The notes under the pieces were generated by a model that saw only the letters and a list, made by a program, of their open reading frames with translations, was not told where the DNA came from and ran no database searches. The translations under genes were made by a program, and so were the position numbers. From Bacteroidales bacterium (GTDB lineage: Bacteria; Bacteroidota; Bacteroidia; Bacteroidales; UBA10428), in the NCBI GenBank assembly GCA_016929525.1, contig JAFGIP010000055.1, forward strand, positions 1 to 49,238: DNA of 49,238 bases. Direction: 5' to 3'. This document shows, piece by piece, positions 4,058 to 20,503 of the stretch (position 1 is the stretch's first letter; each line of letters starts with the position of its first letter).

Positions 4058-4627
4058 ATGAGAGACGAATCTCTGAAATCTCTAAGTGATACTGAAATTA
4101 TCAACAGAATCAGAACTGACAATGTGACCAAGTATTTTGAGATTCTGTACAACCGTTATCATAAGAAGGTTTTGGATAAATGTTACAGCTTTGTTAAAAA
4201 CAGACAGACTGCCGAAGAACTGACAGAAGATATTTTTTCAAAAACATATGAGAAACTGCCTTCATTCAAACAGCTCTCCTCTTTTTCTTCATGGCTGTAT
4301 TCAATAACCTATAATCATTGTATTGATTATCTGCGAGAAAAGAAAATACTTCATTACCCTAACTGGAGTCGTGAAAATGAGATACCTGAAATAATTGATG
4401 AAACTGAAGAAAATTTTGAATATATCAATTATGAAAACCTGCTTGTGATCCTCGAATTAATTCATACTGAAGAAAAGGCGCTGCTGCTTATGAAATACAA
4501 GGACGATTTATCAATGAAGCAGATAAGTGCAGCGCTAAGAATAAGCGAAGATGCAGCTAAAATGAGACTTAAAAGAGCTAGGACAAGGGTTATATACTTA
4601 TATAAAGAGAAATTTCTGAATAATTAG
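4058..4627 (+). CDS. ECF-type RNA polymerase sigma factor
   Basis: A 189-residue sigma-70 family protein. Region 2 is visible at about residues 20-90 (EILYNRYHKKVLDKCYSF, AEELTEDIFSKTYEKLPSF, SWLYSITYNHCIDYLREKK) and region 4 at about 130-180 (ALLLMKYKDDLSMKQISAAL, SEDAAKMRLKRARTRV). It directs RNA polymerase to a specific promoter set. No classical FecR-like anti-sigma gene is next to it; instead PepSY-like proteins lie on both sides. Start: ATG with a TAnnTTTG box just upstream. Its signal and regulon cannot be read from the sequence. Confidence 0.92.
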   Translation: MRDESLKSLSDTEIINRIRTDNVTKYFEILYNRYHKKVLDKCYSFVKNRQTAEELTEDIFSKTYEKLPSFKQLSSFSSWLYSITYNHCIDYLREKKILHYPNWSRENEIPEIIDETEENFEYINYENLLVILELIHTEEKALLLMKYKDDLSMKQISAALRISEDAAKMRLKRARTRVIYLYKEKFLNN

Positions 4628-12187: not shown

Positions 12188-12892
12188 ATGATATACCTGG
12201 TTTTAAACAAATTACAGATCAATATTCTGACTTTTATATTGCTGCATATGTATTTAAATAGCAGTTTTGGGCAGTACAGGTATGGAATTCAGCTAGATGA
12301 AAATACAATGACAGTTGTAAGTTCTCGTGGAGGTAACCTCTATAGCGGTATTGATAATTATTTCAGAATTTCAGAAGTTATTACTGAGGATTATGATACT
12401 GTATTAGTTCATAGTACTAATGGTGCTCCATTGCCAGATAGTAACGATTTAGTTCTTCTCATTCCTAATCGTCCCGGTAAAGTAAGACTTACTTATTATG
12501 GAGTATCCGGTTATGATACAACTACAATTGGTTATCAACATTTTATGGTGCGAAGAGTTCCGGAACCCAAAATGCTTATTGACGATCGACCAATATCCAC
12601 GCCAGGTATAATTGCTAAAAGATATCTGTTATACTGCGACAGCCTTGGGGTTTATTTTAGTGATGACATTATTGGTTCAGAATATTGGCTAAGAGTTAAG
12701 GAATTTACGTTAGGTTATAATTATGGCGGATTTCATGTATCTCATCTTAATCCATCAAATAAAATGACTTTAAGAACAAGACAAATATTATATCGAATTG
12801 GACCGGATAGAACAATTAGTATTAAACTCACTGTTGAAGCTGAAGGGGATATTATGAGAGAACTTCCTATCTATCGTCTGACAATCTATTGA
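12188..12892 (+). CDS. secreted protein with an isolated GldM/PorM C-terminal-type domain
   Basis: A 234-residue protein with an N-terminal hydrophobic segment (LTFILLHMYLNSSFGQ) that looks like a signal peptide or anchor. The rest resembles the last periplasmic domains of GldM/PorM, the T9SS motor subunit: TVVSSRGGNLYSGIDNYFRI, the linker HFMVRRVPEPKMLIDDRP, and a final immunoglobulin-like block ending RYLLYCD to ELPIYRLTI. Full GldM is about 500 residues with an N-terminal motor helix and gldL next to it; both are absent here. It is therefore a stand-alone GldM-C-like protein, possibly an accessory partner of the T9SS machinery or just the same fold reused. It ends tail-to-tail with the next gene, overlapping by seven bases. 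Confidence 0.68.
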   Translation: MIYLVLNKLQINILTFILLHMYLNSSFGQYRYGIQLDENTMTVVSSRGGNLYSGIDNYFRISEVITEDYDTVLVHSTNGAPLPDSNDLVLLIPNRPGKVRLTYYGVSGYDTTTIGYQHFMVRRVPEPKMLIDDRPISTPGIIAKRYLLYCDSLGVYFSDDIIGSEYWLRVKEFTLGYNYGGFHVSHLNPSNKMTLRTRQILYRIGPDRTISIKLTVEAEGDIMRELPIYRLTIY

Positions 12893-13851
12893 GCTTGTTG
12901 AAACGCCAAGGCTTTTTTTATAGTAACTTTATTATCATTAATATAAGCAACAACAAAGGCACGTGGCACCCTGCAACGTATTCTTAGCTGGTTAGCATCC
13001 TTAAAATTATCGAATGAGCCAATCTGGTATTTATACCACTGACCTTCTTTTATCTGCATAACAGTATCTTCACCTGTATAAAACGTTCTTATGTATTCAT
13101 CAGTAAGAATTACAGTGTGGGCTGCAATCTGAACCCTGTATTCAACTTTCACAGTATCCTTTACATTTACAGGTTTTGGTTTTTTCTTAAAGATATCATC
13201 AGGAGGTAACTTCACGGATGGATCGTTGAAAAAACGGGCGAGCTCTTCATCAGAAACATCATCGTCCCAGCCATAATTATATTCCACGGGAAAATCCTGG
13301 TAAATTTGAAGTGCTCTTCCTTTATTTCTTATGGCTTTTTTTTCAAGCTCAAGTGCCTCATGCATTTTATACTGAATCCATTCAGGTTTGTCAGCTTCAA
13401 GCAGGAATTCTCTAATTCGATTTGATCTTCTTATGGTTTGCTCAGCTTTTCTTTCATAATATTTTGCTTTATTAAGTCCTGAAGCATAATGGTTCATTTT
13501 TCTCATTTCCAGCTCAAACTTCCCACAGTTTTCATCAAAAACAGTATATATCATAAGACTACCCTCTTTGTACTCTTCAGATGCATCAATAAGATTCTTG
13601 ATAGCACGACGGTATACAGGGTCAGTTCCTTCCATTTTTATTGTATCATCTATGGTCTCTAAAACTGCCAGTGATTCCCTTTCTATACTGAATGCTTCAT
13701 TCAGTATTTCAACTCCTTTTTCAATGCGTTTTTCATCAATAACCTCAATTTTAATGTTAAGTTCTCTTCTAAAATCCTTAACAGAGAATTCCTGAGAAAA
13801 GCAATTACAATTAACATATATGAATACGGATACAAATAATAATCTAATCAT
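12886..13851 (-). CDS. secreted helical protein with C-terminal SPOR-like domain
   Basis: A 321-residue protein from ATG 13851; the frame opens at a TTG (13875), but the signal peptide starts at MIRLLFVSVFIYVNCNCFSQ. The middle (about 30-200) is helical and rich in Glu/Lys. The C-terminus (about 240-315) is a SPOR-like module: EYRVQIAAHTVILTDEY, WYKYQIGSFDNFKDANQLR, RAFVVAYINDNKV. The same module recurs inside the OmpA protein encoded upstream. SPOR domains bind denuded peptidoglycan, so a wall-associated periplasmic role is likely. The two twin micro-genes lie between these two SPOR-containing genes on the same strand. Confidence 0.7.
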   Translation of the reverse strand: MIRLLFVSVFIYVNCNCFSQEFSVKDFRRELNIKIEVIDEKRIEKGVEILNEAFSIERESLAVLETIDDTIKMEGTDPVYRRAIKNLIDASEEYKEGSLMIYTVFDENCGKFELEMRKMNHYASGLNKAKYYERKAEQTIRRSNRIREFLLEADKPEWIQYKMHEALELEKKAIRNKGRALQIYQDFPVEYNYGWDDDVSDEELARFFNDPSVKLPPDDIFKKKPKPVNVKDTVKVEYRVQIAAHTVILTDEYIRTFYTGEDTVMQIKEGQWYKYQIGSFDNFKDANQLRIRCRVPRAFVVAYINDNKVTIKKALAFQQAQ

Positions 13852-13954
13852 TCTTCGATGATAAACAGATTTCAAAATAATGTTTTATCACCCAAAAATA
13901 GCTATTCGGATATGTAGTTTCAAAGATTTAGGAGGAATAAAATTGAAAATCTGA

Positions 13955-14053
13955 CTAATCGGCTAAATCGTTTGAGATTTCTGGAGCCTCAATGACAAAA
14001 TATCCAATGATGAGTAATGAGATGAGCGGAACTGATAAAATCAACAACCACAT
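13955..14053 (-). CDS. micro-protein A: single-span membrane peptide (32 residues) with APE-(I/V)-SNDL tail
   Basis: ATG at 14053 to TAG; 32 residues: a hydrophobic helix (MWLLILSVPLISLLIIGYFV) followed by a short acidic tail IEAPEISNDLAD. It has a paralogue 280 bases upstream (14335-14427) sharing the end of the helix and the tail (GY-x-V-x-x-APE-I/V-SNDL). Each gene has its own promoter of identical design, which argues strongly that both are real genes. It might be read through into the SPOR-like gene downstream, since no terminator follows. Family unknown; a faint likeness to KdpF-type small subunits (GYLVY…PE) is noted but not relied on. Confidence 0.72.
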   Translation of the reverse strand: MWLLILSVPLISLLIIGYFVIEAPEISNDLAD

Positions 14054-14080
14054 GATCAACTGAATTAAATATTAACAGTA

Positions 14081-14119
14081 CAAATTTAATCATTCGTCAA
14101 AGAATAACAAACATTCGTC
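14081..14119 (-). promoter_or_regulatory. promoter A with tandem GACGAATG direct repeats
   Basis: On the minus strand: -33 element TTTG (14108-14111), 19-base spacer, -7 element TAAATTTG (14081-14088). Two exact copies of GACGAATG flank the -33 box (14112-14119 and 14091-14098), start-to-start 21 bases, i.e. two helical turns. The second promoter at 14459 has the same elements at the same spacing. The repeats look like a binding site for a direct-repeat-recognising regulator. Confidence 0.75.
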
Positions 14120-14271
14120 AAAAATATTTACGTATTAACGGGTGAGATTTGCTTTTATTAGATGTTTAACAGTGATGGCAAATATTATATGTTACATTAT
14201 ATATTGTTTGATCATATATTATAATAGATAGCTTTTATCCCTAATTAGTATGCAGACCGCAAGGTCATAAA

Positions 14272-14303
14272 TAAAAAAAACGATGAACATAAATTCATCG
14301 TTT
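14272..14303 (-). terminator. Rho-independent terminator of micro-gene B
   Basis: On the minus strand a 10-bp perfect stem AAACGATGAA/TTCATCGTTT with a six-base loop is followed by a run of T. It lies about 30 bases after the stop of micro-gene B, so B is a monocistronic unit. Confidence 0.8.
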
Positions 14304-14334
14304 GCCAATATGGTTTCGTTACTAATTTAGTTTT

Positions 14335-14427
14335 CTAAAGATCGTTTGATACCTCAGGTGCTGAATAAACCAGATATCCTAAAAATGCGATCGATGCGAC
14401 TGGAATAGCTATGGCCAAGAATATCAT
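14335..14427 (-). CDS. micro-protein B: single-span membrane peptide (30 residues) with APEVSNDL tail
   Basis: ATG at 14427 to TAG; 30 residues: helix MIFLAIAIPVASIAFLGYLV, tail YSAPEVSNDL. It is a diverged paralogue of micro-protein A (14 or so identical positions concentrated in the last 15 residues). It is bracketed by its own promoter (14459-14497) and a perfect terminator (14272-14303), the layout of an independent, deliberately expressed micro-gene. Function unknown; an inner-membrane regulatory or subunit peptide is the natural guess. Confidence 0.75.
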   Translation of the reverse strand: MIFLAIAIPVASIAFLGYLVYSAPEVSNDL

Positions 14428-14458
14428 TTCTGTAAATTTTAGAGTTTAAATCTAAAGA

Positions 14459-14497
14459 CAAAAATAATCTTTCATCATTAAAAAACAAACATTCGTC
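14459..14497 (-). promoter_or_regulatory. promoter B with tandem GACGAATG-type direct repeats
   Basis: On the minus strand: TTTG (14486-14489), 19-base spacer, TATTTTTG (14459-14466). GACGAATG is at 14490-14497 and a 6/8 copy, GATGAAAG, 21 bases on at 14469-14476. Element order and every distance equal those of promoter A. Expected start of transcription is about 25 bases before the ATG of micro-gene B. Confidence 0.75.
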
Positions 14498-14551
14498 AAA
14501 AAAAAATGTTACTTAACATACAATTTTTGACTTGTTGAATGCTAATTGGAA

Positions 14552-16846
14552 CTACTTTTTATATACAATAATTTCTGCACGGCGATTTGCTTTATGCACT
14601 GCGGGTGAGCAGTCGTAATAACAAAATTTTCTAAGTTTTTGCTCACCAAAACTTAATTCTGTAATTCTCTCCTCGCCAATGCCTGAAGAAATAAGATATT
14701 CTTTAATATATTTTGCCCTCTCTGTAGCAAGGCCCATATTATATGTGTCACTTCCCCGGATATCAGCATGACCATCAATTTCAAAGAATACACTATCATC
14801 ATATTTATATTGTGCCAAGAGCTGATCAATTTTATTAAGTTCTTCTTTTGATACCTTATACTGATCGAAATTAAAGAATACAAGAAGACTTTCTAATTCA
14901 TGCTTCCCGGTATGTTTATTAACCTTCGCAGGTTGTATAGGAGAAATATGTACTTCTTTGATTGCATTCATCAGGTTCAGCTTTGTTTCTCCTTTATAGG
15001 CTGCAATAAAAGCATCTTTTACACCACAACTTTTCCGTAAATTATTTGCTTCATAATAGGAGGTATACTCTCCGATAGCGTATTTATACCAACCCTCTTC
15101 CTGAAACATAAATATATCTCTTCCACCTTTATAGATATTCTTTAATAAATTTTCGCTTAACGGATGTCTGCTCGCAGCAATTTGTACCCTGAAAATTGTC
15201 CCCCTCGCTGGTAAAACTTCCCTTTTCTCGGTTATCATTTCTACTGGTTCCTCCATAATTTCTTCTTCAATCACAGAAGGTTCAATAATCTCTGGTTCAG
15301 GTTCTTTGAAAATTTCCGGCTTTGGACTTTGAGGTTCGCTATCAGGAAGTTTTTCTATTGGATATTTTCCCATATCCACCTCATGAAGACCTACAGCCTC
15401 TGATGAAGCAATGTAAACTTCAAAGTTTTTCATCCTATAACCCTCTCTCCACACTGTTAAATCGTATTTATCATCCGCCTGACCAACAATATTAAACCGG
15501 CCGTTATCTGCAAGTGTAAATTGCGAATTAACATCTCCTTCTTTTTTTATATCTATAGAAATATTCTTAAGATTGTCACCTGTTCTATCATCTGTAACTT
15601 CACCAAATGCTCTTATTTGAGAAATTTCAAAATAATATAAATCTGTTAATGAATTTTCTTCATCTCTGTTTGAACTTAGATAGCCATAACTTTTATCCTC
15701 AGATAAAATGAGACCTATATCATCGAAATTTGAGTTAAGCGGGAAACCAAGATTTTTAGGCAGCGTTGTTGGTTTATTTAAATTGGTATAATACAGATCG
15801 TAACCTCCCAGTCCGCCATGACCAGTTGATGCAAAAATTAGTATGCTGTCATTTATCAGCTCCGGGTAGCGTTCATCACCCAGTGTGTTCACAAACCCAG
15901 GAATCAGTTCCGGTTTTTCGTAACCGTAAGAGTTTCGTTTTGTAATATATAAATCCCAGTCTCCTGATCCAATGTCTGTTACTGCTGAAAAAACAAGAAT
16001 ATGACCCGTATTATTTACCGCAGGGTCTGCAATCTTGAATTCAAACGATTGAATAAGAATTTGTTCTGCATTTGAAATGCTTCTTCCATCCTCCTCCAAA
16101 AAAGAGCGCATTAGATGACCCTTCTTATTGTCATCATCAGTTATTACCTGCAACATTTCACCCGTGATATCAGCTATGGCAAAACCATTTAAATTCCTTT
16201 TATTGGAAGTTTTACCTGAAATATTCTTTAATGACCTATTTTCAGGGTTATCTTTTTCAAAAAAGTAAATATCTCTGTTTAAAGGTTCACTTTGAAAATA
16301 TTTTCTGCTTGACTCAAAAAGTAACTTATCCTGATATAGTTTTGGGTTGTAATCTTCTCCTGTGCTATTCATACACAATTTACTTAATTTAACAAAAGAT
16401 GAGTCCAGGTAATATTTGTCTATATCTTCAATGCTGCTGATAAAACGAAGCACTCTAGGGTCATTCTTCTCCATAAGATTATTATAACTCATGAAATAAC
16501 TCCTTGCTTCATCAGAGCGACCAATTTTTAAAAGGAGATTGCCATATTCAAGAAACAGGGAAGGCTCTACATTATCCGATTTAAAAAATATCTGGTTATA
16601 ATACTGGTCAGACAAATTATATTCTTCCATCTTATCATAACAACGTGCAGCTTGTAAATAACAATATTCTGAATAACCGCCTACTTCCTTTGACTCTTTT
16701 ATGTAATATTTAAGTGCCTTATTATAGTTTTGCTCGGCATAAAATTCATCTGCTTTAATGAGATATTTACTGCCTTGCTGTGCATGATTATTCAAATGAG
16801 TATACAGTAAAAAAAGAGAAATAAAGATAGATTTATAAAGATGCAT
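14552..16846 (-). CDS. multidomain OmpA-family protein (TPR, PD40-type repeats, SPOR-like, OmpA)
   Basis: A 764-residue protein from ATG 16846, where the signal peptide MHLYKSIFISLFLLYTHLNN begins; ATGs at 16876 and 16894 are in frame but precede it. Domains in order: TPR-like repeats (about 30-120), a PD40-type beta-propeller (about 170-420, e.g. GDERYPELINDSILIFASTG and GGLGGYDLYYT), a carboxypeptidase-regulatory-like beta sandwich (about 425-490), a Pro/Glu linker, a SPOR-like module (FRVQIAAS, WYKYAIGEYTSYYEANNLR) and a C-terminal OmpA peptidoglycan-binding domain (DGHADIRGSDTYNMGLATER). It anchors the outer membrane to the wall. The propeller/OmpA plan resembles PorE/Sov-associated T9SS proteins, but without the partner genes here that role is only a possibility. 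The insertion of a SPOR-like module before OmpA is unusual. Confidence 0.85.
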   Translation of the reverse strand: MHLYKSIFISLFLLYTHLNNHAQQGSKYLIKADEFYAEQNYNKALKYYIKESKEVGGYSEYCYLQAARCYDKMEEYNLSDQYYNQIFFKSDNVEPSLFLEYGNLLLKIGRSDEARSYFMSYNNLMEKNDPRVLRFISSIEDIDKYYLDSSFVKLSKLCMNSTGEDYNPKLYQDKLLFESSRKYFQSEPLNRDIYFFEKDNPENRSLKNISGKTSNKRNLNGFAIADITGEMLQVITDDDNKKGHLMRSFLEEDGRSISNAEQILIQSFEFKIADPAVNNTGHILVFSAVTDIGSGDWDLYITKRNSYGYEKPELIPGFVNTLGDERYPELINDSILIFASTGHGGLGGYDLYYTNLNKPTTLPKNLGFPLNSNFDDIGLILSEDKSYGYLSSNRDEENSLTDLYYFEISQIRAFGEVTDDRTGDNLKNISIDIKKEGDVNSQFTLADNGRFNIVGQADDKYDLTVWREGYRMKNFEVYIASSEAVGLHEVDMGKYPIEKLPDSEPQSPKPEIFKEPEPEIIEPSVIEEEIMEEPVEMITEKREVLPARGTIFRVQIAASRHPLSENLLKNIYKGGRDIFMFQEEGWYKYAIGEYTSYYEANNLRKSCGVKDAFIAAYKGETKLNLMNAIKEVHISPIQPAKVNKHTGKHELESLLVFFNFDQYKVSKEELNKIDQLLAQYKYDDSVFFEIDGHADIRGSDTYNMGLATERAKYIKEYLISSGIGEERITELSFGEQKLRKFCYYDCSPAVHKANRRAEIIVYKK

Positions 16847-16893
16847 TGAATTGCTGCAGTTTAACGTTTCAGGCATTACGAAGTTTAAACACA

Positions 16894-19221
16894 TTAACTA
16901 ATAAAGGGTTTTATTTTATCAATTAATTTATTAATGTTTGCTCGTGTATTATCATCAAAATCTTTGATTGTGAGTCTTTTATTTTCACAATAGTTTAAAA
17001 ATTGCGATGCTAGCACTGTCCGTGATAATCCGTTTTCTATTATATATTCTGAATTCTTTGAGGTAATTCCAACCCGCGTTTGCAAAACATATTTTTTAAA
17101 GTCAAGTGTTGAAAAAACATCTTCAGGATATTCGAAATCCTTTAGTTGAAGCAGTCTTTTTTTCTGTTGTTCTTCGTTATTGAAAAATACCGATCTGCTT
17201 AATTCATTCAGAATTTCATCTGAACGGTTCCTGCCTAACAACAGGATGGTAAATCCCAGCTTCCATCCAAGGAGTATATTTGTAAGCAAAGGAATATTAG
17301 TTAAACCTGTAGACGGGATAAATGATGGCTGAATTGTTTCTCCTGCCAGACTGTAAAATGCATTTAAATAATAGTAGCAAATTGTATCTTCAACGATGAA
17401 ATTATTTTTATCGCGAATAAAATCCTGGTTATTCACTTTTACTCCAAGAAGAGAATAAATTGGAGATAATGTATCTGATGATGCTGAATACAGTGATTGC
17501 GCATCTATAATTAATGATTCACTCTGATCATCGCTTTCATTTGCCCTCTGAACAGCAAGAATGCGGTAAAGTTTATTTACATCAACAAGATGTGGGGAAT
17601 GCGTGCAATAAACAATCTGCATTGTATTTTTAAGGTCTTCAAAAACCTTTAAAACATCTTCCTGAGCTCTTGCATGTAAACTTAATCCGGGTTCATCTAT
17701 TAATAACACTCTTGATAAGTGATTGGATTTTGCTGTCGATTTCAGTTCAAGATAAAAAGATAAGAACCAACGAACTCCCCTGCTTCTTTGTTTAGGATAC
17801 AAACGTTCCTGCTTATCTTTAATCCAAAACTCGAGATAGGGTTTGCCGCTCTTTTCAGGATGTGTATAATCGTAATGTTCCAATTCGAAGTTAAGTTGGA
17901 TTTTATTGTCTTTACCAACATTCTGACTCCAGTAATCCTGAAAATTAATGGTAATTTCTCCGTTAAGGTTCTCAATTTTCTGTTTTAGAATTCTGTGATT
18001 CTTCTCTCTGAAAAATGCAGCATTTAAACCAGCTATAAGTAAAAAATTCCTGGCAGCTTTAAACCCCTCTACATGAGTCTTCTCATTCAGAATATCTTCA
18101 AGATCAATTTTATTTGGCAGAAGGCTGCTGAAATCTTCAAAAAATTCAAATACCGGAATGTATTTAAAAAACAGATCCCCCATATTAAATATTGAGTACT
18201 GCCTGTTCTCTAATGCAAGCTCATCTTTCGCAGCTGCTTCGGCAATTCTATAGGGCTCTCCTGCCAAAACCCTCGCAGATATTGCCTTTTGTAAAGATGA
18301 AAACTCCTGTAATTCCTCATGTCTTTTTTCAGCAACTGCTATTTCATTCTTTATTTGTTGAAGCTTGCTGTAAACAAGTTTCTGATCTTTTTGATCTGTG
18401 GAAATTTCATATTGATGTTCAATGTCTTTTCTTCTATTTATTAGTGATTCAAGCTCCGTTGATGCATTAAATGCATTTTGAATACTCTCATTACATTGTT
18501 TGCAAACTGTAACTTTTTCAGAAAGCTGTTGGGTTTCCTGCTTTGCTTTTTCGAATAGCTCAAGTCTGTCTTTAAATTTTTCCTCAGCTTTGTCATATGC
18601 TTTCCGGGCTGATTCCAGTTCTTTTTCGGCAATCAGTTTATCATCTGGCTGTTTAGCTTTTTTAAATGCTTTTCTTTTCTCTTCAAACGTTTTTCTAAGG
18701 TTACTAAGTTCTTCCTGAGCACTGTCCTTTACTTGCTCTGCCAGCTCCATTTCTTTAAAGGTCTTCTCAGCCATTTCAAGTAACTTCTCGATCTCTTCCT
18801 GTGTTTTTTGTTCTATAGCCGTTTTTTCCAGCTCACGTGCTTCATAATAATTCATTATTTCATGATCTGTAACCAGAAGCAAACTAGTTCGATCCTCTTT
18901 CCATTTTCGTGTTATAGTAAACTGTGTTGCAGATTTTAAGTATTCTTTAAGTTTTTCCGGAATTCTGTCTACCTCAAGAATTTCAAATAACGATTTGTAG
19001 TCAAAATCGAACTTACAGCTTACTATTGGAAAAGACAGATCGCTGCGCAATACATCTTCGCTTATACTACCTTCATAAAAACTTTGGAGTGCTTCCAATA
19101 CTGAAGTTTTCCCCGATTCATTCTGTCCTATCAACGCCGTGATATTATCATGAGCCAGGTTACACCAGCCGGAATGTATTATCGATCTGTAATTCTGTAT
19201 GTTGAATGAAAGCAGTTTCAT
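16894..19221 (-). CDS. OLD-like/RecF-type ABC ATPase with coiled coil and zinc-hook-like CxxC
   Basis: A 775-residue protein. Walker A is GQNESGKTS (32-40); after it come a head segment, a long coiled coil (about 125-320) with a central CKQC (Cys240/Cys243) at the likely apex, a signature-like region RSRGVRWFLSFY (479-490), Walker B VLLIDEPG (505-512) and the switch His in YCTHSPHLVD (539-547). The C-terminus (about 605-775) is placed like the Toprim domain of OLD nucleases and begins with NFIVEDTICYYYL, but the expected DxD-type motif is replaced by LLLGRNRSDE. A DNA-processing or phage-defence role is likely for the family; nuclease activity is doubtful. Its stop overlaps an in-frame ATG of the OmpA gene, so co-transcription is possible. 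Confidence 0.82.
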   Translation of the reverse strand: MKLLSFNIQNYRSIIHSGWCNLAHDNITALIGQNESGKTSVLEALQSFYEGSISEDVLRSDLSFPIVSCKFDFDYKSLFEILEVDRIPEKLKEYLKSATQFTITRKWKEDRTSLLLVTDHEIMNYYEARELEKTAIEQKTQEEIEKLLEMAEKTFKEMELAEQVKDSAQEELSNLRKTFEEKRKAFKKAKQPDDKLIAEKELESARKAYDKAEEKFKDRLELFEKAKQETQQLSEKVTVCKQCNESIQNAFNASTELESLINRRKDIEHQYEISTDQKDQKLVYSKLQQIKNEIAVAEKRHEELQEFSSLQKAISARVLAGEPYRIAEAAAKDELALENRQYSIFNMGDLFFKYIPVFEFFEDFSSLLPNKIDLEDILNEKTHVEGFKAARNFLLIAGLNAAFFREKNHRILKQKIENLNGEITINFQDYWSQNVGKDNKIQLNFELEHYDYTHPEKSGKPYLEFWIKDKQERLYPKQRSRGVRWFLSFYLELKSTAKSNHLSRVLLIDEPGLSLHARAQEDVLKVFEDLKNTMQIVYCTHSPHLVDVNKLYRILAVQRANESDDQSESLIIDAQSLYSASSDTLSPIYSLLGVKVNNQDFIRDKNNFIVEDTICYYYLNAFYSLAGETIQPSFIPSTGLTNIPLLTNILLGWKLGFTILLLGRNRSDEILNELSRSVFFNNEEQQKKRLLQLKDFEYPEDVFSTLDFKKYVLQTRVGITSKNSEYIIENGLSRTVLASQFLNYCENKRLTIKDFDDNTRANINKLIDKIKPFIS

Positions 19222-19380: not shown

Positions 19381-20205
19381 TTATTTATGATAGCGCATTC
19401 CAAAGATCAAAATATCATCAAGTTGAGGTATCCGACCTTTCCACTTTTCTACAGACTCTTTTAATTCTTTTTTCTGCGAATGCATAGGCATTGAATTAAT
19501 ATTCAGAAGAAGATTTCTAAATGGCCGGTATTTAAATTTCTTTCCCTTCGGGCCCCCAAACTGATCAGCAAAACCATCTGAAAACAAATATATCATGTCA
19601 CCTTCATCAATATTCACAATATGGTTTGTAAATGATGTTTCTTCTTCAGCACCTACTCCGATAGGCATCTTATCACCGGGTATTTCTATCAGTCGATTTG
19701 AGTTTTTAATTACATACATAGGATTAAAAGCACCAGAGAACTGAAGTATATTTTTTTGAGGTTCAATAATACAAAGTGCCATATCAATACCATCCTTTTG
19801 TTCGCTTTCTTCGCCTGTCTGATTTAAAGATTTCATGATGTGTTCACGAAGTGTATTTAAAACTCCTGAGGCTGAAGTACAATCGCTCCTGCCTACTATC
19901 TGATTTAAAACAGAAATACCAAGTATACTTAAGAAAGCACCTGGAACACCATGACCGGTGCAGTCGGCAACAGCTAAAAATAGCCTGTCGTTTCTGCGAG
20001 CCATCCAGTAAAAATCACCACTTACGATATCCCGGGGCAGATATAACAGAAAGTGCTCAGGAAAGTATTTTTTAAGCTGATTTTCGGTCGGTAATATTGC
20101 TTTCTGAATATAACTGGCATATTTCAGACTCTCTGTAAGTTCTTTTTTTTGCTTTTCGAATCTGATATTAATATCATTTAATGTATCTTTCTTTGAATGG
20201 CTCAT
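19381..20205 (-). CDS. SpoIIE/RsbU-type PP2C serine phosphatase
   Basis: A 274-residue soluble protein: a short coiled-coil N-terminus (about 1-30) and a complete PP2C_SpoIIE domain (about 40-274). Metal-binding and family motifs: YLPRDIVSGDFYW, VADCTGHGVPGAFLS, GDMIYLFSDGFADQFGG and QLDDILIFGMR. Such phosphatases act in partner-switching or downstream of sensory kinases; here no sensor domain is attached and no anti-sigma partner is nearby, so input must come in trans. Start ATG is 159 bases upstream of nothing coding on this strand; divergent to micro-gene C. Confidence 0.9.
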   Translation of the reverse strand: MSHSKKDTLNDINIRFEKQKKELTESLKYASYIQKAILPTENQLKKYFPEHFLLYLPRDIVSGDFYWMARRNDRLFLAVADCTGHGVPGAFLSILGISVLNQIVGRSDCTSASGVLNTLREHIMKSLNQTGEESEQKDGIDMALCIIEPQKNILQFSGAFNPMYVIKNSNRLIEIPGDKMPIGVGAEEETSFTNHIVNIDEGDMIYLFSDGFADQFGGPKGKKFKYRPFRNLLLNINSMPMHSQKKELKESVEKWKGRIPQLDDILIFGMRYHK

Positions 20206-20257
20206 GAATGAAAAATCTTGTAAATACAGGTATAAAAGCCACTTTGTTTACAATTCA

Positions 20258-20290
20258 TTTGGCATAAGTGCTTAAATACCCTTAAATTTG
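20258..20290 (+). promoter_or_regulatory. Bacteroidota-type promoter for micro-gene C
   Basis: TTTG (20258-20261), 21-base spacer, TAAATTTG (20283-20290). It lies about 60 bases before the ATG at 20351, which is itself preceded by AAGGA. Confidence 0.55.
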
Positions 20291-20350
20291 ATTATCAAAG
20301 ATATAGATAAGGAGGAATTAATTTCATTTTTTAATCGACAATAAGGACTA

Positions 20351-20503
20351 ATGAGATTGTTATTATTGATATTTTACATCTTTTTCTGTTCGTTTGGGCT
20401 GATGTACCTGTTGGTAATTTTTGCCCCTGAATATGTCGAAGATAAAAATGGAAATTTAATACCCAAAAAAGATGCTATAAAGAAGAAATTGGCGAATACC
20501 TGA
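20351..20503 (+). CDS. small single-span membrane protein (50 residues)
   Basis: ATG at 20351, preceded by an AAGGA-type ribosome binding site and a good TTTG-21-TAAATTTG promoter. It encodes a hydrophobic helix (LLLLIFYIFFCSFGLMYLLV) then a charged tail beginning FAPEYVEDKNGNLIPKKDAI. The helix-then-APE junction echoes micro-proteins A and B at 14 kb, though the tail differs. Its 3' end overlaps the 3' end of the opposite-strand gene by 29 bases. Function unknown. Confidence 0.55.
   Translation: MRLLLLIFYIFFCSFGLMYLLVIFAPEYVEDKNGNLIPKKDAIKKKLANT

What the first reader, a model, noticed from the sequence alone, without database searches (positions are those of the whole stretch)
13955..14497. 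Twin micro-membrane-protein genes with matched promoters and direct-repeat operators
Two genes of 32 and 30 codons encode single-span membrane peptides that share the helix end and tail (GY-x-V-x-x-APE-I/V-SNDL). Each has a Bacteroidota promoter (TTTG-19-TAnnTTTG). In both, GACGAATG repeats flank the -33 box at a 21-base period and sit at the same distance from the -7 element. B also ends in a perfect terminator. Conservation of protein and regulatory architecture together argues for a real, co-regulated system, possibly induced by an activator of the LytTR or similar direct-repeat-binding type. It lies between two genes that share a SPOR-like module. Seen directly: sequences and spacings. Inferred: co-regulation and function.
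Basis: seen in the sequence. Interest (0 to 1): 0.82.

Follow-up and report, generated by a model that had tools for sequence, protein, structure and literature searches.

The report
Micromembrane peptides under a LytTR regulator
Two tiny, conserved membrane-peptide genes in an uncultured Bacteroidales bacterium carry the same phased repeats as the gene of one LytTR response regulator and genes for large secreted surface proteins, so they look like part of an undescribed surface-control circuit.

Summary
Peptides A (32 aa) and B (30 aa) belong to an undescribed microprotein family in 18 of 23 genomes of the window's family, under purifying selection. All 19 testable copies have paired TTGACGAA repeats at a 21-bp period (0.09 expected).

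The likely binder: the same repeats sit in the leader of one stand-alone REC-LytTR response regulator (14 of 15 leaders in register; 10 paralogous leaders score 5-7 mismatches) and at Ig/PKD and beta-helix surface-protein genes. In the 7 genomes without the regulator, its neighbour htpG is missing or at a contig edge.

So "LytTR-type, co-regulated" is supported by sequence. "Activator" is not: the arrays overlap the peptide core promoters and lie downstream of the regulator's own -7 box, suggesting repression there. The peptide's job is inferred: a small inner-membrane accessory or modulator. No wet evidence exists.

The parts
13955..14053 (-). microprotein A, 32 aa, single membrane span, tail APEISNDLAD
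   Evidence: purifying selection; one long helix, mean pLDDT 86
14335..14427 (-). microprotein B, 30 aa, paralogue of A (tail APEVSNDL)
14093..14121 (-). operator A: TTGACGAA-N13-TTGACGAA (half-sites 14121-14114 and 14100-14093)
   Evidence: 19 of 19 testable family promoters have the pair
14081..14088 (-). -7 box of A, TAAATTTG, 4 bp after the last repeat; -33 TTTG at 14111-14108
   Evidence: the -33 box is seen in the genus only (by eye)
14471..14499 (-). operator B: TTGACGAA-N13-ATGATGAA (second half-site degenerate)
14459..14466 (-). -7 box of B, TATTTTTG; -33 TTTG at 14489-14486
14278..14303 (-). intrinsic terminator after B (11 pairs, 4-nt loop, T tail)
   Evidence: 7 of 20 copies, B included, have such a hairpin within 30 nt of the stop
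14552..16894 (-). upstream gene: OmpA-domain protein, PorE-like below cut-off, with the same module
   Evidence: OmpA and a sub-threshold carboxypeptidase-regulatory match in Pfam; NCBIfam PorE 177.9 bits against a cut-off of 600
16894..19221 (-). AAA_15/SMC-type ATPase gene; relatives (recognised by eye from the C-terminus) lie upstream of the peptide gene in 16 of 16 genomes with an intact upstream flank, with the OmpA gene in between in the window's genus

Best explanation
A and B are two copies of a conserved family of ~30-aa single-pass inner-membrane proteins (20 intact copies in 18 of 23 genomes). They are transcribed from their own promoters under an array of 21-bp-phased TTGACGAA half-sites. 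The array is most likely bound by one stand-alone REC-LytTR response regulator (own genome G000:C117:24570-25268, near htpG), whose own leader carries the same array. Shown by sequence: the peptide family, the arrays, and their recurrence at the regulator and at surface-protein genes. Inferred: binding; repression of the peptide genes and of the regulator itself, because the array lies over the core promoter or downstream of the -7 box; possible activation at some Ig/PKD adhesin genes, where the array lies farther upstream; and the peptide's job. My choice for the job: a small accessory or modulator in the inner membrane, made when the regulator lets go, acting on a membrane partner of the surface programme. 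Partner candidates are the regulator's unknown kinase (a feedback peptide) or the neighbouring ATPase, SPOR-like or PorE-like proteins.
For: Peptide family. Selection: dN 0.055-0.15 against dS 0.81-1.49 in four closer pairs. Operators: 19 of 19 testable promoters, 0.09 expected, half-site TTGACGAA nearly invariant over 38 half-sites. Family-wide search at up to 1 mismatch: 68 places against 16 for the reversed control, in 22 of 23 genomes. By reading: 20 at the peptide genes (16 genomes), 10 in the regulator leader, 11 at beta-helix-type secreted proteins, 8 at Ig/PKD adhesins, 6 near a tsaD-like gene, 2 before a SpoIIE phosphatase gene, 2 at other secreted or glycosidase genes, 6 inside frames, 3 other. 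Regulator = PF00072 + PF04397, in 16 of 23 family genomes. Leader repeats: 10 of 15 at up to 1 mismatch, 12 of 15 at up to 3, 14 of 15 in the same register; 10 paralogous LytTR leaders, from six other family genomes, give 5-7 mismatches at best. The 7 genomes without the regulator also lack htpG (5) or have htpG at a contig edge (2). Published LytTR sites: repeats of 9-11 nt separated by 11-13 nt, no common consensus (PMC4847170, passage). Outside the family, G409 has a divergent peptide with three phased TTGAC-type repeats and a 77%-identical regulator. In G005 the decayed B copy has also lost its repeats (best 7 mismatches).
Against: No binding or expression data. The gap from the last repeat to the -7 box drifts from 4 to 6 bp between genera. 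In the own genome the regulator's leader site has 3 mismatches, and 3 of 15 leaders have 4-5. The peptide was not found in 5 of 23 genomes, including G010 (98% complete) and G011 (94%), which do have the regulator, so the regulon does not need the peptide. Outside the family the leader repeats mostly fade: 3 of 78 other named loci at up to 2 mismatches (one search kept the best 80 of a capped list). The autoregulation described for LytTR systems in PMC6193735 is positive, not negative. Adhesin sites lie in both orientations, so repression cannot be the whole story.
Confidence: 0.7

Rival explanations
1. The same LytTR regulator binds the repeats but activates the peptide promoters.
For: Many known LytTR regulators activate (recalled; the systems in PMC6193735 do). 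Outside the genus the -33 box is absent, which would fit an activator-dependent promoter. A third repeat extends upstream in G012 and G014. At 3 of 4 genus adhesin sites the array ends 22 bp upstream of a CGTATA element.
Against: One half-site lies in the spacer 4-6 bp before the -7 box, and in 6 of 19 promoters a further weaker half-site runs through the -7 box. Known LytTR activator repeats sit about 10-11 bp upstream of -35/-33. The regulator's own array lies downstream of its -7 box, though that box shows no clear -33 partner either.
Confidence: 0.33
2. A different DNA-binding protein (another LytTR or an AraC-type regulator) binds the repeats, and the REC-LytTR gene is only one of its targets.
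For: A site in a regulator's leader shows control of that gene, not that its product is the binder. The genomes hold several other LytTR regulators.
Against: LytTR regulators are known to autoregulate (PMC6193735, passages). Ten paralogous LytTR leaders lack the repeats. Repeat length and spacing fit LytTR. The regulator is found wherever its locus is assembled.
Confidence: 0.13
3. The peptide is a working part of the neighbouring ATPase locus, for instance the membrane end of an AriA/OLD-like ATPase system or a small subunit of an envelope complex, rather than a signalling modulator.
For: The ATPase gene lies upstream in 16 of 16 genomes with an intact upstream flank, even where the downstream gene has changed (recognised by eye). 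The ATPase scores against AriA over the whole model.
Against: The peptide has its own promoter and, in 7 of 20 copies, a terminator-like hairpin within 30 nt. Conserved adjacency across the family may simply be inherited.
Confidence: 0.35
4. The peptide is a small hydrophobic toxin of a type I toxin-antitoxin pair.
For: About 30 aa, one span, tandem copies in two genomes, operator-controlled promoter.
Against: No Rfam match at gathering threshold in window 12500-17500. The invariant APE motif, a tail that is acidic in 17 of 20 copies and long-term purifying selection do not suit a plain pore-forming toxin.
Confidence: 0.05

Closest known systems
LytTR response regulators with phased direct repeats (YpdB, VirR and, by recall, AgrA)
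   Same: LytTR DNA-binding domain (PF04397) and two to three direct repeats with ~21-bp period, as described for LytTR sites
   Different: Half-site TTGACGAA. The arrays overlap the core promoter or leader instead of lying ~10 bp upstream of -35. Targets here are surface proteins and microproteins.
Bacteroides LRS-like operons (PMC6193735, passages)
   Same: LytTR-type repeats (11 bp with 11-bp spacer) with a Bacteroidota TAnnTTTG promoter, and a membrane-protein gene in the circuit
   Different: There the regulator itself spans the membrane and its partner carries NfeD-like and DUF2154 domains. Here the regulator is soluble REC-LytTR, on another contig than the 30-aa peptides, and the repeats are not upstream of -33.
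MgrB (47 aa), feedback peptide of PhoQ/PhoP
   Same: a small membrane protein in the regulon of a response regulator (PMC8404706, PMC2789325: starts of abstracts in the listing)
   Different: no sequence relation tested; kinase unknown; likely repressed rather than induced by its regulator; action not shown
KdpF (small subunit of the Kdp potassium pump)
   Same: size, single span; 1 of 20 members matches the NCBIfam KdpF model at E 0.026
   Different: E-value not significant, no kdp gene recognised among the neighbours read, invariant APE motif

Membership tests
LytTR response regulator (the proposed binder) | REC domain followed by LytTR DNA-binding domain | tested here: met
   PF00072 1e-18 and PF04397 2.7e-21 on the G012 protein; own-genome orthologue 85% identical
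LytTR response regulator (the proposed binder) | 9-11-nt repeats with 11-13-nt spacer (about 21-bp period) at targets | tested here: met
   19 of 19 testable peptide promoters; 14 of 15 regulator leaders in register
LytTR response regulator (the proposed binder) | direct binding of the regulator to the repeats | not testable with these tools
   only comparison of sequences; no biochemistry
LytTR regulatory system (LRS) of PMC6193735 | regulator and inhibitory membrane protein in one operon | tested here: not met
   regulator on contig C117, peptides on C93 of the own genome
LytTR regulatory system (LRS) of PMC6193735 | repeats ~10 bp upstream of the -35 box | tested here: not met
   repeats flank the -33 box in the genus, last repeat 4-6 bp before the -7 box
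MgrB-type feedback peptide | small single-span membrane protein controlled by the response regulator | tested here: inconclusive
   span predicted by hydrophobicity and a helix model; control inferred from operators only
MgrB-type feedback peptide | inhibits the cognate kinase | not testable with these tools
   kinase unknown
KdpF | significant match to the family model, kdp gene context | tested here: not met
   best E 0.026 in 1 of 20 members; no kdp gene recognised by eye among the neighbours
type I toxin | toxic hydrophobic peptide with an antisense or trans RNA antitoxin | tested here: inconclusive
   no Rfam match at gathering threshold in 12500-17500; toxicity not testable

The most novel reading that the evidence does not exclude
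A Bacteroidota feedback circuit: an htpG-linked LytTR response regulator represses itself and a ~30-aa membrane peptide while controlling large T9SS-type surface proteins, and the peptide acts back on the regulator's kinase or on surface-assembly machinery. This would be an MgrB-like membrane peptide in Bacteroidota, with control by a core-promoter-overlapping LytTR array.
Probability: 0.3. Interest if true: 0.72.

Novelty: new variant of a known kind. Interest (0 to 1): 0.6.

Why it matters
In the rows listed by seven paper searches I saw no study of this LytTR regulator, its TTGACGAA operator or this peptide family; most subscription papers are not held. If right, a family-wide regulon can be read straight from sequence: one regulator, a defined operator, surface proteins, and a microprotein too short for most annotation. 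That gives a concrete entry into how Bacteroidales switch their surface proteins, and a testable membrane peptide in a phylum where I recall few such peptides. Operators that cover the core promoter would also extend what is known of LytTR geometry.

Tried and rejected
Chance or non-coding frame: rejected. Own-genome search at 3 mismatches and a degenerate own-genome pattern (31 places against 9 for the control; their neighbours were not read beyond those already known) are too loose to call a regulon on their own. A site before the window's SpoIIE gene (20205-20475) was looked for and not found, although 2 relatives have one. Order-wide peptide search: 12 of 393 genomes matched at E <= 0.01, 5 of them in the family; of the 7 outside, five loci were read and only G409 looked real, while the G227 and G300 hits were not read (frames of 426, 427 and 300 aa). 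Rfam: nothing. Solved structures: none for the peptide profile. Scanning the 20 peptides gave only weak single-span look-alikes (best Pfam E 0.007, PsbM, 3 of 20). The helix model adds little. One search lists 22 of 23 genomes at E <= 1; I count 18 after reading context and dropped G002, G010, G011 and G019 as chance; G003 had no match.

The CGTATA element near all 8 adhesin sites is unexplained; it is near 5 of 13 beta-helix/secreted sites (0.88 expected) and near none of the 10 regulator, 6 tsaD or 2 SpoIIE sites.

My notebook gives 14 for the control; recounted, it is 16 (8 + 8), and the report uses 16.

Full report
What is there. The window (G000:C93 of a 4.06-Mb, 122-contig genome) has two minus-strand frames, A (14053-13955, 32 aa) and B (14427-14335, 30 aa), between an OmpA-domain, PorE-like gene and a gene that shares a C-terminal module with it. 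Two loci named in a public collection are the same contigs as two genus members: MAG UBA10428 = G002 and Zod_Metabat.800 = G008, both labelled Bacteroidales. Gene names trmH, htpG, tsaD and tamB below are recalled from sequence by eye; no family scan was run on those proteins.

The peptides are real genes. Same-genus orthologues of the OmpA gene brought in loci with peptides ending APE[IVL][ST]N[DE] at the same place. A profile search of 23 family genomes, read in context, gives 20 intact copies in 18 genomes: two copies in G000 and G001, one in each of the others; G005 has one intact and one decayed copy. Not found in G002 (66% complete), G003 (69%), G010 (98%), G011 (94%), G019 (87%). The core is LLxLxPxxSLxxLGYLVxTAPE; A23-P24-E25 is invariant in 20 of 20. 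All 20 start with ATG; 19 of 20 have a stop and the twentieth runs into Ns. Of 12 pairs compared, dS was computable in 7 (dN 0.05-0.29, dS 0.81-2.6); in the other 5 dS was saturated and dN 0.22-0.28. The 19 residues before APE have Kyte-Doolittle means of 1.95-2.84; tails are acidic in 17 of 20 (charge -3 to +1), which suggests N-in/C-out topology (inference). AlphaFold gives one long helix plus a short tail helix, mean pLDDT 86. No known family fits.

The operator. Upstream of 19 of 19 testable copies there is a TTGACGAA pair at 21 bp with up to 3 mismatches (16 with up to 1); 0.09 expected from 300 dinucleotide shuffles each. Over 38 half-sites TGA is invariant and CGAA nearly so. G012 and G014 have three repeats. 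An exact TAnnTTTG follows in 17 of 19. The gap from the last repeat to this box is 4 bp in the window's genus except G005 (5), 5 in G012 and G014, and 6 in the other genera (some read by eye). In G001A, G018, G012, G021, G016 and G022 a further half-site (1-3 mismatches) follows at the next 21-bp step, through the -7 box; taken alone this is weak evidence. B's second half-site is degenerate. In G005 the decayed B copy has no repeats left.

The likely binder. A family-wide pattern search (up to 1 mismatch) gives 68 places against 16 for the reversed control. I fetched and read the neighbours of the places not already known to be at peptide genes. Ten are in the leader of the same gene: a 233-aa REC-LytTR response regulator (domains), with a trmH-like gene upstream in 9 of the 10 and, where the stretch reached it, a ~280-aa gene and htpG downstream. 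The own genome has it at C117:24570-25268, with GACGAATG-N13-GATGAAAC in its leader. Of 15 readable family leaders, 10 have up to 1 mismatch, 12 up to 3, and 14 have the site in the same register (the other, G016, has only a degenerate stretch there); a TATATTTG-type box comes first and the repeats follow, just before the ATG. Ten paralogous LytTR leaders, from six family genomes in which the orthologue was not found, have best scores of 5-7 mismatches. Seven of 23 genomes seemed to lack the regulator. Five of those also lack htpG, and in the other two htpG lies at a contig edge, so these are most likely assembly gaps. Outside the family clear relatives of the regulator continue at 52-77% identity, but leader repeats are clear in only 3 of 78 named loci at up to 2 mismatches (best 80 of a capped list). 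L184 and G409 show drifted TTGACAAA-like repeats at 21-bp steps (by eye).

The rest of the regulon. By reading, the 68 places divide into: peptide genes 20 (16 genomes), regulator leader 10, beta-helix-type secreted proteins 11, Ig/PKD adhesins 8, near a tsaD-like gene 6, before a SpoIIE phosphatase gene 2, other secreted or glycosidase genes 2, inside reading frames 6, other 3. The last two groups (9) do not exceed the control of 16. Nine target proteins were scanned: L118 and L126 are Ig_7 (L118 also PKD), and the other six adhesins are classed with them by their N-termini, by eye; L114, L147, L108 and L143 are beta-helix (three with cadherin domains), and L115, L116, L119 and L148 are classed with them by eye; L114 and L147 carry the T9SS sorting tail; L107 is SpoIIE, L144 a rhamnosidase, L149 gave nothing. 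All 8 adhesin sites have CGTATA on either strand within 70 bp (0.49 expected), function unknown.

One case outside the family. G409 (another family) has MIWLILSLVSFALVGYCVLQAPE..., directly preceded by three phased repeats (TTGACACA, TTGACAAA, TTGACAAA), and a 77%-identical regulator. The peptide hit alone is weak (E 0.0089 in one of 393 genomes); the repeats and the regulator make it convincing to me. Its start codon overlaps the last repeat, so its promoter must be arranged differently.

How it works. LytTR sites are described as 9-11-nt repeats with 11-13-nt spacers and no common consensus (PMC4847170, passages), which this array fits. LytTR activator repeats lie about 10 bp upstream of -35, and 11 bp upstream of the promoter in Bacteroides LRS-like operons (PMC6193735, passages). 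Here the peptide arrays cover the core promoter and the regulator array lies downstream of its -7 box, so I favour repression for both (about 60:40 for the peptide, stronger for the regulator), although the autoregulation described in PMC6193735 is positive. At 3 of 4 genus adhesin sites the last repeat ends 22 bp before CGTATA, which could be activating. This is inference from geometry.

What the peptide does is open. The ATPase gene is upstream in 16 of 16 genomes with intact flank, which favours a partner at that locus. Control by a response regulator recalls MgrB (starts of abstracts). The regulator occurs without the peptide in G010 and G011, so the peptide is an add-on, not a core part of the switch. 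Terminator-like hairpins lie within 30 nt of the stop in 7 of 20 copies, B included; A has none and may read into the downstream gene.

Literature. In the rows listed by seven searches I saw nothing on this regulator, operator or peptide; I read passages of two papers and only listings of the others. Most subscription papers are not held.

Noticed in passing
L117, L118, L122, L150, L126, L127, L134, L141: All 8 Ig/PKD adhesin sites with the repeats have CGTATA (either strand) within 70 bp (0.49 expected); it may be a promoter element of another sigma factor. In several g4 peptide promoters the -7 box reads CGTATATTTG.
   Followed up: partly
L128, L130, L135, L137, L140, L145: Six g4 genomes have TTGAC(C/A)AA-N13-TTGACGAA next to a tsaD-like gene, in most with a TamB-like gene nearby (names by eye); the same place in each, so perhaps a real target.
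   Followed up: partly
L013 (G005:C138), 4099-4158: A decayed second peptide copy keeps the APEV tail but has lost most of its membrane span and all operator repeats.
   Followed up: yes
window 19381-20205: SpoIIE phosphatase distantly like SiaA (181 bits, cut-off 700) upstream of the ATPase gene. In G012 and G011 the repeats precede such a gene; in the window they do not.
   Followed up: partly
window 16894-19221: AAA_15/SMC-type ATPase resembling AriA/OLD, upstream of the peptide gene in 16 of 16 intact flanks; C-terminal part not explained.
   Followed up: no
G013:C41 (L147): Two adjacent ~1055-aa secreted proteins (the scanned one is beta-helix with a T9SS tail) each have a three-repeat TTGA-type array upstream, in opposite orientation to the gene.
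   Followed up: partly
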